Of a stretch of DNA of 8,307 nt, positions 2,216 through 8,307 are shown piece after piece (the stretch's first letter is position 1; the number at the start of each line of letters is the position of its first letter). The notes below the pieces were generated by a model. The model did no database searches. It worked only from the letters and a program-made list of their open reading frames with translations, and was not told where the DNA came from. The position numbers and the translations under genes are program-made. The stretch is from a bacterium (GTDB lineage: Bacteria; UBP6; JAFGXH01). The stretch is from assembly GCA_027064085.1 (NCBI GenBank), contig JAMOQH010000130.1, forward strand, positions 1 through 8,307. Reading direction: 5' to 3'.

Positions 2216-2244
2216 TTGTAATTGCTATTTAATTGTTGTATAAT
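2216..2244 (+). promoter_or_regulatory. promoter of the BREX operon
   Basis: TTGTAA (2216-2221) and a perfect TATAAT (2239-2244) are separated by exactly 17 bp, the best promoter-like sequence in the window. Transcription would begin near 2251, giving a leader of about 20 nt before the brxA start at 2272. The -10 box lies inside the frame upstream of brxA, which argues against a translation start at 2233. Confidence 0.6.
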
Positions 2245-2262
2245 ATTTCTTCTTTTATATTT

Positions 2263-2266
2263 GGAG
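2263..2266 (+). promoter_or_regulatory. ribosome binding site that fixes the brxA start (TTG at 2272)
   Basis: GGAG at 2263-2266 lies 5 nt before an in-frame TTG at 2272-2274. No such sequence precedes the in-frame TTG codons at 2233 and 2236, and the first in-frame ATG (2392) would remove the conserved N-terminal region of BrxA. Confidence 0.6.
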
Positions 2267-2271
2267 ATTTT

Positions 2272-3030
2272 TTGGTAAAAAAAGAAATATTATATAATAC
2301 AGATATTAATATAATTGGTAGTATTCCTGATTATAGTCTTATTTTAAAAACATTAAAGTTACACTCAAAAAATAGTGATAAAATAGAAGAAATGATTATT
2401 AAAAATAATGAATTTGATTTTAGAACTGAAAAATCAAGAAAGAGATTTTTATCAGGAGTTGAGTCTGCTTTTTTAAATTTTAAAAATAAAGAACATAAAA
2501 AATTAATAAAAGCCCTTTTTAATACTGAATTAACAAGAGAAAATGAAAATATGATACTTTTTTGGCAGTTTTCAATTAATAATAAATTGTTTTTTGAAAT
2601 AACAAAAGAAGTTTTTTTTAAAGAATATTATTCTGGTAAAGTTTCCTTCTCTAAAGAGTATATAATTGCTTTTATTAAAGATTTGATTTCTAAAAATGAG
2701 AATTTAAAAGGTAAATGGTCTGAAACTACAATAAATACTATTGCATCTAAATATTTAACTATCTTAAAAAAACTTGGCTTAGTTGAAGGCAGTAAAGTAA
2801 AAAAGTTTAAAAATATTTATCTTTCTGATGAAAGTTTATTGATATTTTTACAAATTATAAAAATAATAGAGCCTTTAAGTGTAAACATTTTAAAAAGTAT
2901 GTATTTAGAATTTTCTTTTGTTTCTAAAGAAAATTTATTTTTTAGAATAAAGACTTTTGCTAAAAAAGGCTTAGTTAATATGAATTTTGATGGAAAAATT
3001 TTAAAAATAGAGTTTTTAGGTGGTTTTTAG
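2272..3030 (+). CDS. brxA: BREX system protein BrxA (DUF1819 family)
   Basis: A 252-residue protein starting at TTG 2272, chosen because it has a ribosome binding site and lies downstream of the promoter; a longer frame runs back to 2233. The N-terminal region IIGSIPDYSLILKTLKLH followed by EFDFRTEKSRKRFLSGVESA resembles the DUF1819 start (a serine/arginine-containing stretch before a helix). The C-terminal half (KWSETTINTIASKYLTILKK, then LGLVEG) fits the helical, winged-helix-like end of the family. Established knowledge: BrxA is a small all-helical DNA-binding protein of type 1 BREX whose exact job in defence is unresolved. It is the first gene of the operon, 8 nt before brxB, and its stop codon overlaps the brxB ribosome binding site, suggesting coupled translation. 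Identification leans partly on the unmistakable brxB-brxC-pglX neighbours. A run of eight T at 2612-2619 is a possible slippage site. Confidence 0.85.
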   Translation: MVKKEILYNTDINIIGSIPDYSLILKTLKLHSKNSDKIEEMIIKNNEFDFRTEKSRKRFLSGVESAFLNFKNKEHKKLIKALFNTELTRENENMILFWQFSINNKLFFEITKEVFFKEYYSGKVSFSKEYIIAFIKDLISKNENLKGKWSETTINTIASKYLTILKKLGLVEGSKVKKFKNIYLSDESLLIFLQIIKIIEPLSVNILKSMYLEFSFVSKENLFFRIKTFAKKGLVNMNFDGKILKIEFLGGF

Positions 3031-3038
3031 GAGATATA

Positions 3039-3590
3039 ATGTCTTATGAAATGGAATATATAAGGAAATTCAAAGAATTAGAAAGTTCTTTGAATGATAT
3101 TACAAGGCTTTCATTAAGTGCTAATGGAGGAAAAGCTATAATATTTTCATTTTCACCAAAAGATGAGAATAACTATATAAGAGAAGTAAAGAAAAGATAT
3201 AGTGAAAGGGCTATTTTTATAGATTTAAGTAAAATTTTTGTTAATTATATAGATAGCATTGGAATAGATAATTTTAAAGACCTTTATAAAGATTTTATTG
3301 ATACTCCTCATATAATTTTCAAAGATGAAACTGATAGTAATAAAGATTTTTTTGATATGATAATTGAAGAAATAAAAGATGCAGATAATTTAGGTAAGTT
3401 ACCGATATTGTTAAGAACGGGTGTTTTATATGGTACAGGTATAGAAAATCAAAATATTTTAGAGCATGATACTGTAATGAAACTAAAACAAGCATTGATT
3501 TTATTTTATCCATCAAAAATAGAAAATAATGATTTGTTATTTTTAAATTTTAAAACTGCTTCTAGGTATAGAGCGTTATTAATTAATTAA
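3039..3590 (+). CDS. brxB: BREX system protein BrxB (DUF1788 family)
   Basis: A complete 183-residue protein. The ATG at 3039 is preceded by AGGAGA (3029-3034), which overlaps the brxA stop. DUF1788 hallmarks are visible: an N-terminal helix (YIRKFKELESSL), a central beta strand RAIFIDLSKIF (about residues 57-67), the motif PILLRTGVLYGTG (about 122-134), then ILEHDTVMKLKQALILFYPS, and the C-terminal FLNFKTASRYRALLIN in which the S-R-Y-R stretch is typical. Length is close to the family norm of about 190-200. Established knowledge: BrxB is a core component of type 1 BREX, needed for defence in tested systems, with no known enzymatic activity. The protein is cytosolic, with no signal sequence. 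The gene lies 11 nt before brxC and is clearly co-transcribed with it. Confidence 0.93.
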   Translation: MSYEMEYIRKFKELESSLNDITRLSLSANGGKAIIFSFSPKDENNYIREVKKRYSERAIFIDLSKIFVNYIDSIGIDNFKDLYKDFIDTPHIIFKDETDSNKDFFDMIIEEIKDADNLGKLPILLRTGVLYGTGIENQNILEHDTVMKLKQALILFYPSKIENNDLLFLNFKTASRYRALLIN

Positions 3591-3601: not shown

Positions 3602-6600
3602 ATGACAAGTATAAAAGATATATTAAAGATAAATTTAGATGAAGATATTAAATCTGTAATAGATTTAGAAGACTATAAAGAAATTGAAATTCAAAAAGAA
3701 ATTGAAAGTTATATTATAACTGAAAATATAGCAAAATATTTTTCAGTATTTTTGGATAAATTTACTTCTAATATATCAGAAACTGGAGTTTGGGTCTCTG
3801 GATTTTATGGCTCTGGTAAATCATATTTTGGTAAAATGTTAGGATATTTATTAGATAATCCTAGCATCAATGGAACAGATGTAATTACTCGTTTTATTAC
3901 TCGTTTAGAGGGCTTAAATAATGCTTATTTACTTGAAAATGATATAAGAAATATTGAAAATATTAAAAATAAGGTTGTTTTATTAGATATTGCAAAGCAA
4001 AATACTAGTAATGGGCTTGCTTTTACATTGTTTTTTAATTTTTTAAAAAAACTTGGATTTAGAACTGATGTTTATGGTTATATTGAATATGATTTTTTTA
4101 TTAATGGTGACTATAATCTTTTAAAAAAGAATTCTTTAGATTTATTTGGAGAAGATTGGGATAAGGCAAAAAATAACAAGCTAAATTTAGCTGGATTAAT
4201 GAAAAAGCTTTATATGAAAACCTTAGATAAATCAGAAGCTGATTATGAGCAAACACTAAAAATTTACAATAACTCTATTCAGAAGTTTTCTGCAACTGAT
4301 TTAAAAGATGAATTAAAAAAATATCTTGATAAATATAAAAATGAAAATATTGTTTTTATTTTTGATGAAGCAAGTGAAGCAATTTCACAAAATAAATTTT
4401 CCTTACTTGATTTAGAGGGGGTGAGTGAAGCACTCTCTAGCATAAAATCTAAAGTTTGGACTATTGCAATTGCACAACAAAAACTTGATGATGTAATTAA
4501 TAATATGAATATTAATAAGAGTGATTTAATTAAAGTTACAGATAGATTTAAAACTAAAATACATTTAGAATCAACTGATGTTGATATTATTATAAAAAAT
4601 AGATTATTACAAAAAAATAATGATGCTCTTGGTAAATTAAATGATTACTTTATGCAAAATAATGGCAATATTTCTGAAATAACTAATCTAAATTCAACAC
4701 ATCCAACTAAAACAAAAGATAATGAAGAATTTTCTACTTATTATCCTTTTCATAATTATCACTTTAAACTTTTACAGGACTTCTTGTTTTCTTCTAATGC
4801 TCTTACTGCGAATCAAATGGCTGCAAGAGGGATGATAATAACAACTTTTGATGTATTAAAAGATATTAAAAATAATGAATTATTTAATTTTACAACACTT
4901 TATGATATTTGTTCAAGAGCTCAAGTTGCTCCACCTGAAGAATTAAGTATAAAATATAGAGAATCTCTTAATATTTTAAAAGAACAAAAATTAGCAGTTA
5001 ATGGTGAAAGCTTGTTAAAAGTAATACATGTTTTAAGCAATTCAGGGGTTATTGATTCAACATTAGACAATATTACTAAAGCTTATATACATGACATTAA
5101 TGATTTTTATACTATAAAACCTTTAATAGAAGACTCTTTAAGTATTTTAGTTGAATCAGGTGTTTTACTGTTTTCAAACAATAAGTATAAAATAACATCT
5201 AATCAAGAAACTAAATTAATTGATGAAATGAAGAACCATGCAATTGAGCTATATACAAAAAAAAGAAACTTTACCAATTTCTTAAGAGATATTAAAATAT
5301 TTAAAAATATTTCAACAATTAAAGAGGGAGAAATTTCTTATAATTTTAGGATAAAAACAGATAAAGATGATGATGAAATTGTTAAAAGTAAAAATAAATC
5401 ATTAAATTTTACAGTTACTAATTTATATGATATTGGCAATATAGAGGATTTGAAAAATGAAAAAAAACAAAATCCTAAAAATAATAATATTGTTTTAATT
5501 CCAAATAATATAGATTTTATTCTTATTGATAAATTATTAACTGATATTGAAAAATATAATTATATATTAAACAAATATTCTTCTGATACAGATAAAAAAA
5601 TAAAAGAAATAATAAGAGAATTTAATATAATTAAAGAAGAAAAGTTAAAGAGTTTAACAGATAGAATTGAAGATGCTTATCTTAATGGTTTCCTGATTTA
5701 TAATTCAATATTAATTAAATTAAATAAAGAAAATTTCAATTTGGAGATCAATAAAATAGAAAAAAAATTAATTGATAATGTTTACACTAAAAAATTATCA
5801 TCTCAATTATCAGAGAACTTGGCAACAGCGGTTATAAAACGGAAAAACAACAAAGATTTGTCTAAACTATTTGAAAAATTCTCGTTTTTCGATGATTCAG
5901 GCAGGTTTATAGGGGATAATTTAAGTATTGTAGAAGAAATAAGAGATGAAATAAAAAATGGTTTTGTTTCAGGAAAAGATTTAGAAGAGAAATTTAGTGA
6001 AGCTCCTTGGGGTTATAGTTATGGTTCTATTGTAACTGTTTTAGCTGTTTTATTTAGAGCTGGAAGGCTTGAAGTTAAGTATAATGACTTTAAATATCAA
6101 GATTATAGAAAGGAGCAGGTTTATAAAGTTTTTGATGTATCAAGAGAGTTTAAAAAAGCAAGTTTTAAATATATTAGTAAAGTTTTATCTGCAAGTAAAA
6201 AAACAGAACTTGTTGAAGCATTGCAAAATTTAAAATATGATAAATATATTGGTAAGGAAATTAGTTTTAATATAAATGATATTGAACTGGTTAAATCAAT
6301 CAAGGTTTTAGCTGAATTTTTTATTTTAAAAATTAATAGTATAAAAAGAACTGTGGCTAATTTTAAAATTTTATCAGAAAATATAAATAATGCTCATGAT
6401 ATTTTAATAAAATATGATATTATGATTAATACGGATAACTATATTGATAAAGCTGATGTTTTTTTAAGTGAATACAGTGAAATTGAGGAAAAAATTAAAT
6501 ATATTATTAAAGTAGAGAAATTTATTGATAAAAAAATGGAAAATTTGAATATATTTAAAACTTTTATAAATGAAGTTGATTCTGAAATAAAAAAAACAAG

Positions 6601-7342
6601 AAAAGAAAATGAAGAAATAAAAGAAAATTATGAAAGATTCAATGAATTATATAATGGCGATATAGTAAATAATTTTTCTGAAATAAAAGAAATTGTACAA
6701 ATAATAAGAGATGAATATTTTAAAATTACAAGAAAAAAAATAATCTTAATGACAAATATTTATAGTGAAATAAAAATAAAAATAAATAATGCCCTTCATG
6801 ATTTAGAAAATAATTATCCTGAAAGAGAGAATATTAATAATAAAAAGAGATTAGAAAACTTGAAAAGAGAATGTGAAGACTATATTATTCAAGAAAATGA
6901 TATTAATTTTGATTATAGTATAAAATGTAAAAAATGTGGATTTACGCTATCAGAAATAATAAGTTATATTGAATTAGCATCACTTAAAGAACAAAAAATA
7001 TCAGAAATTGAAAATAGTTTTATTAGTGAATCCAAATATTCGCCCTCTAATAATGAATCCCAAAAAATATATTCAAAATGGAATAAAAAGTTAGCTTCTT
7101 TGAGTGGAAGTAATTTTCATGAAGAAGCGGCTAATTATATAGGTACTCCTATAGTTATAGATGATGAAATTGAAGAGCCTATAAAAAAAGTTCAAAAAAT
7201 AAAATTAACAATATATGGCAATAAAATGACTGTTAAAGAATATAGAAAATTATTGTCTTCTCAATTACAGTTATTGGCAAATAAAGATGATAATGAAGAT
7301 ATAGAATTAATAATAGAAGAATTGGTACTAGCGAGGGATTAA
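3602..7342 (+). CDS. brxC: BREX system P-loop ATPase BrxC
   Basis: A complete 1246-residue protein with ATG at 3602 and GAGGA at 3593-3597. Walker A is GFYGSGKS at residues 67-74, preceded by GVWVS as usual in BrxC/PglY. Walker B is VFIFDEASEA at 251-260 (Asp255, Glu256). A sensor-1-like strand TIAIAQQKLDDV follows at 287-298, then the DRFKTKIHLESTDVD region with Arg315 and IKNRLLQK with Arg334, candidate arginine-finger/sensor residues. The middle is mixed helical. Residues about 960-1095 are strongly coiled-coil (KKTRKENEEIKENYERFNEL), followed by one CKKC pair (Cys1109, Cys1112) that could be half a zinc site. Length matches type 1 BrxC (about 1200). Established knowledge: BrxC is the large AAA-type ATPase essential for BREX defence and, in several systems, for host methylation together with PglX. 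No frameshift or stop interrupts it. Its last codons contain the pglX ribosome binding site, so brxC and pglX are probably translationally coupled. Confidence 0.96.
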   Translation: MTSIKDILKINLDEDIKSVIDLEDYKEIEIQKEIESYIITENIAKYFSVFLDKFTSNISETGVWVSGFYGSGKSYFGKMLGYLLDNPSINGTDVITRFITRLEGLNNAYLLENDIRNIENIKNKVVLLDIAKQNTSNGLAFTLFFNFLKKLGFRTDVYGYIEYDFFINGDYNLLKKNSLDLFGEDWDKAKNNKLNLAGLMKKLYMKTLDKSEADYEQTLKIYNNSIQKFSATDLKDELKKYLDKYKNENIVFIFDEASEAISQNKFSLLDLEGVSEALSSIKSKVWTIAIAQQKLDDVINNMNINKSDLIKVTDRFKTKIHLESTDVDIIIKNRLLQKNNDALGKLNDYFMQNNGNISEITNLNSTHPTKTKDNEEFSTYYPFHNYHFKLLQDFLFSSNALTANQMAARGMIITTFDVLKDIKNNELFNFTTLYDICSRAQVAPPEELSIKYRESLNILKEQKLAVNGESLLKVIHVLSNSGVIDSTLDNITKAYIHDINDFYTIKPLIEDSLSILVESGVLLFSNNKYKITSNQETKLIDEMKNHAIELYTKKRNFTNFLRDIKIFKNISTIKEGEISYNFRIKTDKDDDEIVKSKNKSLNFTVTNLYDIGNIEDLKNEKKQNPKNNNIVLIPNNIDFILIDKLLTDIEKYNYILNKYSSDTDKKIKEIIREFNIIKEEKLKSLTDRIEDAYLNGFLIYNSILIKLNKENFNLEINKIEKKLIDNVYTKKLSSQLSENLATAVIKRKNNKDLSKLFEKFSFFDDSGRFIGDNLSIVEEIRDEIKNGFVSGKDLEEKFSEAPWGYSYGSIVTVLAVLFRAGRLEVKYNDFKYQDYRKEQVYKVFDVSREFKKASFKYISKVLSASKKTELVEALQNLKYDKYIGKEISFNINDIELVKSIKVLAEFFILKINSIKRTVANFKILSENINNAHDILIKYDIMINTDNYIDKADVFLSEYSEIEEKIKYIIKVEKFIDKKMENLNIFKTFINEVDSEIKKTRKENEEIKENYERFNELYNGDIVNNFSEIKEIVQIIRDEYFKITRKKIILMTNIYSEIKIKINNALHDLENNYPERENINNKKRLENLKRECEDYIIQENDINFDYSIKCKKCGFTLSEIISYIELASLKEQKISEIENSFISESKYSPSNNESQKIYSKWNKKLASLSGSNFHEEAANYIGTPIVIDDEIEEPIKKVQKIKLTIYGNKMTVKEYRKLLSSQLQLLANKDDNEDIELIIEELVLARD

Positions 7343-7344
7343 TA

Positions 7345-8307
7345 ATGAAATTAGCTGAACATGTAAATGAAATTAGAGAGTTGATTGTTGAAAAAATAGA
7401 AGTTGAATTTATGAAAGTTGGTGGATTTACCCACCCCACAAAGCCGAAGCCTCTCGACTCTGCACCCCTCCATGGAGGGGAATTAAAGATTCTAAATTTA
7501 CTTGATGATTATACAAAAGAAACTGGTAGTTTAGAATTAGCAAAAGAAAAGGCTATAGATGAATTTGCTTTTACGCTTTTTAATCAAATTGCTGCTATAA
7601 AAGTAATGGAAAGCCATAATTTATTTCCTCCTATTATAACAAAAGATGAAAATAGTGGAAATCGCTCTTTGGGGCATAAAATTTGGTTGGAAAATAATCC
7701 AAATATGAAACAAGTTCAGTTTGAAGGGATAAAAGACTATATAGAATATGAATTTAATAAATTAGCTAAAGAAATTTTGCTTTTTAATAAAGATTACCCT
7801 TATAGTTTAATTCCTGATGCTGTAAATTTAAATGAAATAATAAATAGGTTTAATGAAGTTGATTACAATCTTTGGAGAGATAATGATATTTTGGGATGGC
7901 TTTATGAAAGTTATAATAATGCCAAAAAAGAAGCCTTTAAAAAAAGCAAGAAAAAAACAGAATATGATAAAGTTTCTTTGCAGTCTCAAGTTTATACACC
8001 AAGTTGGGTTGTTGAGTTTTTAGTTAATAATTCATTAGGGAAATTGTATTTAGAGATGTATCCTGATTCTGAGATAGGGGAAAAGTATAAAATAGCAAGG
8101 GATTTACCCACCCCACAAAGTCAAAGCATCTTGACTTCGCACCCCTCCACTTTTGAACAAAGTTCAAGGAGGGGAATTAAACCCACCCCACAAAGTCAAA
8201 GCATCTTGACTTCGCACCCCTCCACTTTTGAACAAAGTTCAAGGAGGGGAATTAAACCCACCCCACAAAGTCAAAGCATCTTGACTTCGCACCCCTCCAC
8301 TTTTGAA
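7345..8307 (+). CDS. pglX: BREX-1 adenine-specific DNA methyltransferase PglX, N-terminal part, interrupted in-frame by palindromic repeats (3' end outside window)
   Basis: ATG 7345, two nt after brxC, with GAGGG at 7333-7337. The frame stays open for all 321 visible codons. After a helix (MKLAEHVNEIRELIVEKIEV), residues 28-46 come from a GC-rich repeat. PglX sequence then resumes: EFAFTLFNQIAAIKVMESHN (residues 73-92), the family's conserved N-terminal helix, and SQVYTPSWVVEFLVNNSLGK (214-233), the motif X-like region that precedes the methyltransferase domain. From residue 255 the protein reads a 25-residue repeat (PTPQSQSILTSHP..., ending SSRRGIK) at least 2.7 times up to the window edge. 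In intact PglX (about 1100-1200 residues), motif I (DPACGSG) should follow soon after this point; neither it nor the catalytic NPPY is visible here. Role, from family knowledge: N6-adenine methylation of a non-palindromic site to mark host DNA. Whether this copy is functional is open. Confidence 0.92.
   Translation, partial: MKLAEHVNEIRELIVEKIEVEFMKVGGFTHPTKPKPLDSAPLHGGELKILNLLDDYTKETGSLELAKEKAIDEFAFTLFNQIAAIKVMESHNLFPPIITKDENSGNRSLGHKIWLENNPNMKQVQFEGIKDYIEYEFNKLAKEILLFNKDYPYSLIPDAVNLNEIINRFNEVDYNLWRDNDILGWLYESYNNAKKEAFKKSKKKTEYDKVSLQSQVYTPSWVVEFLVNNSLGKLYLEMYPDSEIGEKYKIARDLPTPQSQSILTSHPSTFEQSSRRGIKPTPQSQSILTSHPSTFEQSSRRGIKPTPQSQSILTSHPSTFE
7426..7487 (+). repeat. short palindromic repeat element (copy A) inside pglX
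   Basis: A 62-bp GC-rich island in AT-rich coding DNA, bounded by TTTA (7426-7429) and TAAA (7484-7487). It contains ACCCACCCCACAAAG (7429-7443), a degenerate inverted repeat around AAGCCGA / TCGACTC, and the perfect 16-bp palindrome CCCCTCC-AT-GGAGGGG (7465-7480), followed by AATTAAA. Removing 57 bp (7426-7482) would rejoin GGA to TTA AAG ATT in frame, so the net addition is probably 19 codons. The inserted peptide reads FTHPTKPKPLDSAPLHGGE. It shares both flanking blocks with the tandem array further downstream and differs from it by 17 bp in the loop. Confidence 0.85.
8103..8307 (+). repeat. tandem array of a 75-bp palindromic element (copy B), in-frame in pglX, continuing beyond the window
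   Basis: Units begin at 8107, 8182 and 8257; the first two are complete and identical, and the third is identical over its 51 visible bases. Each unit has CCCACCCCACAAAG, a hairpin AAGTCAA (8118-8124) / TTGACTT (8131-8137), a second hairpin CCCCTCC (8142-8148) / GGAGGGG (8168-8174) extended by TTGAAC (8153-8158) / GTTCAA (8162-8167) with a 4-nt bulge and AAA loop, and GAATTAAA. The first unit is preceded by GGATTTA, as is copy A. A 75-bp unit equals 25 codons, so any copy number preserves the frame; the other two forward frames each meet a TGA inside the unit. The total number of units is unknown. Confidence 0.92.

What the first reader, a model, noticed from the sequence alone, without database searches (positions are those of the whole stretch)
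8103..8307. Perfect 75-bp in-frame tandem array inside the BREX methyltransferase gene
At least 2.7 identical 75-bp units sit within pglX, each encoding the same 25-residue Ser/Pro/Gln/Thr-rich peptide, placed between the motif X-like YTPSW region and the expected motif I. Perfect identity points to recent expansion or homogenisation. Because 75 is a multiple of three, unit number could change by recombination or slippage without breaking the frame. That would vary the length of a probably disordered linker in the enzyme that marks self DNA. Unlike frameshift-type phase variation known in some methyltransferase genes, this would be a graded, length-tuning change. That functional reading is inference.
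Basis: partly seen in the sequence, partly recalled or inferred. Interest (0 to 1): 0.85.

Follow-up and report, generated by a model that had tools for sequence, protein, structure and literature searches.

The report
Hairpin repeat copied within defence gene
The 75-base tandem array is a small hairpin-forming DNA repeat that is scattered through this genome, has entered one phage-defence (BREX) gene in frame at four places, and has recently multiplied at one of them; elements that insert in frame like this are known from Rickettsia, but this family and this many copies in one defence gene look new.

Summary
The array is real as sequence: 202 bp (8106-8307) of perfect 75-bp periodicity, in frame in pglX. 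It is not a stand-alone linker repeat. Each unit is a copy of a dispersed two-hairpin palindromic element (ACCCACCCC-hairpin-CACCCCTCC-hairpin-GGGGAATT, core 48-73 bp) found at about 11 sites in this genome and in none of 27 other genomes of its phylum. Four sites are in pglX: 7429-7484, the array, and two on contig C25, which carries the rest of pglX (DPASGSG and NPPY present, open to the end). Other in-frame copies lie in mnmH, a multihaem cytochrome and a DegT-type aminotransferase. Homologues show clean empty sites at pglX site 3 and in mnmH; stem changes are compensatory. The closest known kind is the Rickettsia palindromic element (RPE) and other intragenic REPs. The figure "2.7 units" comes from the assembly: the contig ends inside the array with a 127-base self-overlap, the overlap other contig ends share (apparently k=127). 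The true number is at least 2.7 and unknown. Length-tuning or phase variation of PglX could not be tested: no second strain and no reads were available.

The parts
2233..3030 (+). brxA
   Evidence: Pfam BrxA E=3e-16; PADLOC BrxA E=5.9e-61
3039..3590 (+). brxB
   Evidence: PADLOC BrxB E=2.3e-33; Pfam BrxB E=0.00012, below its cut-off
3602..7342 (+). brxC
   Evidence: PADLOC BrxC-PglY 1164 bits
7345..8307 (+). pglX, 5' part (321 codons, runs off the contig); the 3' part is on contig G000:C25 (L020:942-3896, minus strand)
   Evidence: PADLOC PglX: window part matches positions 1-258 and C25 part 272-1241 of model PDLC02519
7429..7484 (+). site 1: single in-frame copy of the palindromic element
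   Evidence: covariance model R1, 80.9 bits, E=1.8e-16 over the genome
8106..8180 (+). site 2, array unit 1
8181..8255 (+). site 2, array unit 2, identical to unit 1
8256..8307 (+). site 2, array unit 3, cut off by the contig end after 52 bases

Best explanation
The array is a dispersed, hairpin-forming palindromic element of the RPE / intragenic-REP kind. It inserted in frame into pglX at four sites, and at the site between the YTPSW region and motif I it was then tandemly duplicated to at least 2.7 perfect copies. Shown: the element family, its two hairpins with compensatory changes, four in-frame sites in one gene, clean empty sites in homologues, and an open frame on both contigs. Inferred: copies persist in genes because they land in tolerant loops or linkers and add a number of bases that keeps the frame; the array grew by replication slippage or unequal recombination between adjacent copies; the product is a PglX with at least 67 extra, polar, probably unstructured residues in a linker. 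How the element is copied to new places is unknown; a single-strand hairpin route, as proposed for REPs, is a guess. A change in unit number would alter linker length without breaking the frame, but nothing here shows that this happens or matters.
For: Copies at about 11 sites in the genome by covariance model, none in 27 other genomes of the phylum. Seven stem pairs with changes on both sides, 0 or 1 when partners are slid; five of six copies fold far better than shuffles. In-frame copies in pglX (4 sites), cytochrome, mnmH and aminotransferase. Empty sites: PglX of G286, 52% identical, lacks the site 3 insert and the array; two same-family MnmH proteins lack the 23-residue insert. Unit GC is 47% against 24% for the window. 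Frame open on both contigs with DPASGSG and NPPY.
Against: Insertion was not observed, only inferred from homologues 46-52% identical. Site 1 has no net length gain against the G286 homologue, so it is not a clean insertion there. The junction from array to C25 is not assembled, so the frame across it is unproven. No mobilising enzyme is linked to the element.
Confidence: 0.85

Rival explanations
1. Functional length-tuning or phase-variable array: unit number varies between cells, lengthening or shortening the PglX linker and so changing methylation or defence.
For: Perfect identity of units and a period divisible by three; the array lies in a linker of variable length and sequence between homologues. 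Phase variation of PglX is reported in the Streptomyces coelicolor system, and a high frequency of pglX disruptions is noted (PMC9122589).
Against: No variation was seen or could be looked for. Single copies of the same element sit in frame at three other pglX sites and in unrelated genes, so being in frame and being in a linker need no regulatory explanation.
Confidence: 0.08
2. Assembly artefact: the tandem repetition at the contig end was made by the assembler, and the genome has one copy of the element at this site.
For: The contig ends inside the array, and the 127-base terminal self-overlap equals the overlap shared by other contig ends. Multi-k assemblers carry sequence over from earlier rounds.
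Against: A 75-bp loop at k=127 needs 128-base words that span more than one unit, which a single copy does not supply. None of the other 54 contig ends checked shows a terminal repeat of this kind.
Confidence: 0.1
3. pglX is a decaying gene: the inserts have inactivated it and accumulate because selection on it has ended.
For: Four inserts in one gene, one of them about 20 residues after NPPY in the catalytic domain.
Against: All inserts keep the frame, 321 + 984 codons are open with motifs intact (DPASGSG, NPPY), and similarity to an intact homologue is high along the whole length. A decaying gene would be expected to show stops or frameshifts.
Confidence: 0.12

Closest known systems
Rickettsia palindromic elements (RPE)
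   Same: Palindromic, dispersed, inserted in frame into unrelated protein-coding genes, different reading frames used, no protein of their own (PMC10969869; PMC3733652)
   Different: Core is 48-73 bp against about 150 bp, unrelated lineage, two short hairpins side by side, four sites in one gene with a perfect tandem array at one
Intragenic GTAG/CGTC REPs (Di Nocera and colleagues 2013, PMC3733652)
   Same: Short palindromes found inside ORFs, sometimes twice in one ORF or in clusters that encode 43-82 residues
   Different: No GTAG or CGTC tag at either end, no linked RAYT gene found
PglX / BrxX of type 1 BREX
   Same: The host gene is a typical PglX in a brxA-brxB-brxC-pglX order
   Different: Carries four in-frame repeat inserts; pglZ and brxL were not seen because the contigs end
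Phase-variable pglX of the Streptomyces coelicolor Pgl system
   Same: A repeat in pglX that could change by slippage
   Different: Reported phase variation of PglX switches the system on and off (general knowledge; reported as phase variation in PMC9122589); here only in-frame length change is possible, and no variation is shown

Membership tests
RPE-like in-frame palindromic element | Palindromic, able to form hairpins | tested here: met
   Folding against shuffles and compensatory pairs
RPE-like in-frame palindromic element | In-frame copies within unrelated protein-coding genes, absent from homologues | tested here: met
   pglX, mnmH, cytochrome, aminotransferase; empty sites shown for pglX site 3 and mnmH, not checked for the others
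RPE of Rickettsia, as a named sequence family | About 150 bp, with the sequence of a described RPE family | tested here: not met
   Core 48-73 bp; sequence comparison with RPE families was not made
REP/REPIN with RAYT | GTAG or CGTC tag at one end | tested here: not met
   Ends are ACCCACCCC and GGGGAATT in the aligned copies
REP/REPIN with RAYT | A RAYT-type (Y1_Tnp) gene flanked by the element | tested here: not met
   Three Y1_Tnp genes in the genome; the flanks read of each do not carry this element, and one has hairpins of its own
MITE | Terminal inverted repeats | tested here: not met
   The 5' end ACCCACCCC and 3' end GGGGAATT are not inverted complements over their length
MITE | Target-site duplication | tested here: inconclusive
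   Direct repeats of 37 and 21 bp abut the left edge of two intergenic copies, with 12 and 40 bases between element and repeat on the right; no such repeat at the other sites
Phase-variable repeat | Unit number differs between strains or within a population | not testable with these tools
   No second strain of the species and no reads; same-family genomes lack a homologue of this pglX
PglX (BREX methyltransferase) | Motif I and NPPY, full-length match to PglX models, brx neighbours | tested here: met
   the two parts lie on separate contigs

The most novel reading that the evidence does not exclude
pglX is a preferred landing ground for in-frame palindromic elements, and their tandem growth in the YTPSW to motif I linker tunes the BREX methyltransferase: a graded form of variation in a self-marking enzyme.
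Probability: 0.07. Interest if true: 0.8.

Novelty: new variant of a known kind. Interest (0 to 1): 0.45.

Why it matters
In-frame palindromic inserts are best known from Rickettsia. An unrelated family in another lineage, with four sites in a single phage-defence enzyme and one of them visibly multiplied, would show how small selfish repeats lengthen working proteins, and would give a natural test of how much insertion a BREX methyltransferase tolerates. It also warns that contig breaks at such repeats can be mistaken for arrays with a definite unit number.

Tried and rejected
Element in phages and plasmids by blastn: no match. Element pattern in viral contigs: none; a looser pattern hit one contig with only a generic resemblance. 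Rfam: no match. DUF559, suggested by the neighbour of the L052 copy, is not found in this genome. RAYT as mobiliser: Y1_Tnp genes present but not linked to this element. PglX relatives in viral contigs: none. PglX on plasmids: only distant. The different insert at site 4 of the G286 PglX, searched in plasmids: no match, so that it is a dispersed repeat is not shown. A contig overlapping the start of C25: only a weak 43-base match.

Full report
What is there. The window is a complete contig (G000:C130) of a 3.65-Mb draft genome in 195 contigs. It carries brxA, brxB, brxC and the 5' part of pglX. The array at 8106-8307 is perfect, with period 75.

The unit is a dispersed element. A DNA search of the genome found diverged copies at 7429 in the same gene, on contig C25 and on C185. 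C25, read on the minus strand, is the rest of pglX: it begins DIKIIDPASGSG, has TANPPY, and matches PglX model PDLC02519 from 272 to 1241, while the window part matches 1-258. It carries two more in-frame copies. A further copy was seen by eye in mnmH. Six copies were aligned and made into a covariance model. The model finds 13 matches at E<=0.01 in this genome, which make 11 sites when the array counts as one, and none in 27 other genomes of the phylum. The two weakest of these (C15, C167) share the ends but have a different central hairpin.

Structure. There are two hairpins: a variable stem closed by a loop near AGCATC, and CCCCTCC/GGAGGGG with, in two copies, an inner stem. Seven pairs show changes on both sides; sliding the partners by 1 to 3 columns leaves 0 or 1. 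All copies except site 1 fold well below their shuffles.

In-frame insertion. Copies lie in open frames of pglX (four sites), a multihaem cytochrome, mnmH and a DegT-type aminotransferase, in different reading frames of the element; others are intergenic or in a short ORF. The names cytochrome, mnmH and DegT rest on my reading of the sequences, not on a profile search. The closest PglX found (52% identity over the C25 part, genome G286) has no insert at site 3 and a stretch of about 15 residues where the array lies; at site 4 it carries a different palindromic stretch, ACCACGAAG...CTTCGTGGT, encoding HHEEHREHEE...LRDLRDLRG. At site 1 the two proteins have the same length, so that copy replaced sequence or the native loop was shorter. 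Two same-family MnmH proteins lack the 23-residue insert.

Clustering. Four of 11 sites in one gene is very unlikely by random placement (6 in 2,000,000 simulations). Sites 1, 3 and 4 are 89-95% identical to each other, so local spread or gene conversion within pglX is likely, which lowers the number of independent events.

How many units. The terminal self-match at offset 75 is 127 bases long, and other contig ends share exact runs of 127, 126 and 126 bases. The simplest reading is a de Bruijn assembly with k=127 that went once round a 75-bp loop. That implies real tandem DNA of at least 202 bp and an unknown total. Multi-k assemblers carry over sequence from earlier rounds, so an artefact is unlikely but not excluded. 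C25 does not begin with array sequence, so a further piece between the two contigs is missing from the assembly.

Position in the enzyme. In solved Salmonella PglX the N-terminal helical bundle is residues 1-227, and motif I and NPPY (509-512) lie in the methyltransferase region 227-661 (PMC11341690). By alignment, site 1 is in the part that corresponds to the bundle, the array lies between YTPSW and motif I, site 3 lies about 20 residues after NPPY, and site 4 after the methyltransferase region. Twenty of 25 unit residues are P, S, T, Q, R, K, E or G, so a disordered linker is plausible but was not modelled.

Elsewhere. A pattern scan of 84,980 species gave one true copy, 94% identical to the mnmH copy, in a Peptostreptococcaceae MAG, overlapping the end of a short ORF that I read as a DUF559-type endonuclease from memory; the other match looks like chance. 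Mis-binning of that contig is possible. The window's own genome is left out of that scan by design, so the count concerns other genomes only.

Comparison with what is known. RPEs in Rickettsia and REPs in several other genomes are known to lie in frame inside genes, sometimes twice in one gene or in clusters that encode 43-82 residues (PMC10969869; PMC3733652). This element works like them in landing in frame in unrelated genes. It fails the REP tags, a linked RAYT and MITE terminal inverted repeats, so it is not filed as a REP or a MITE.

Verdict. Its nature is a new RPE-like family with unusual density in pglX and tandem growth at one site. The tuning hypothesis stays open.

Noticed in passing
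L100:5198-5253 and L102:9520-9574: Two intergenic copies have direct repeats of 37 and 21 bp, one copy abutting the left edge of the element, possibly long target-site duplications and so a sign of recent insertion.
   Followed up: partly
L054, PglX of G286, about residue 940: At the position of site 4 an unrelated PglX carries a different in-frame palindromic stretch, ACCACGAAG...CTTCGTGGT, which suggests that this spot tolerates inserts.
   Followed up: partly
L026:1331-1390 and 1860-1935: A Y1_Tnp gene is flanked on both sides by REP-like hairpins of another family, TCCCACCA...TGGTGGA.
   Followed up: no
L052:7584-7637: Near-identical element in a MAG named Peptostreptococcaceae, overlapping the 3' end of a short ORF; either transfer between lineages or a mis-binned contig.
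   Followed up: partly
L020:173-814, minus strand: The 213-residue ORF directly after pglX has no Pfam or PADLOC match.
   Followed up: no
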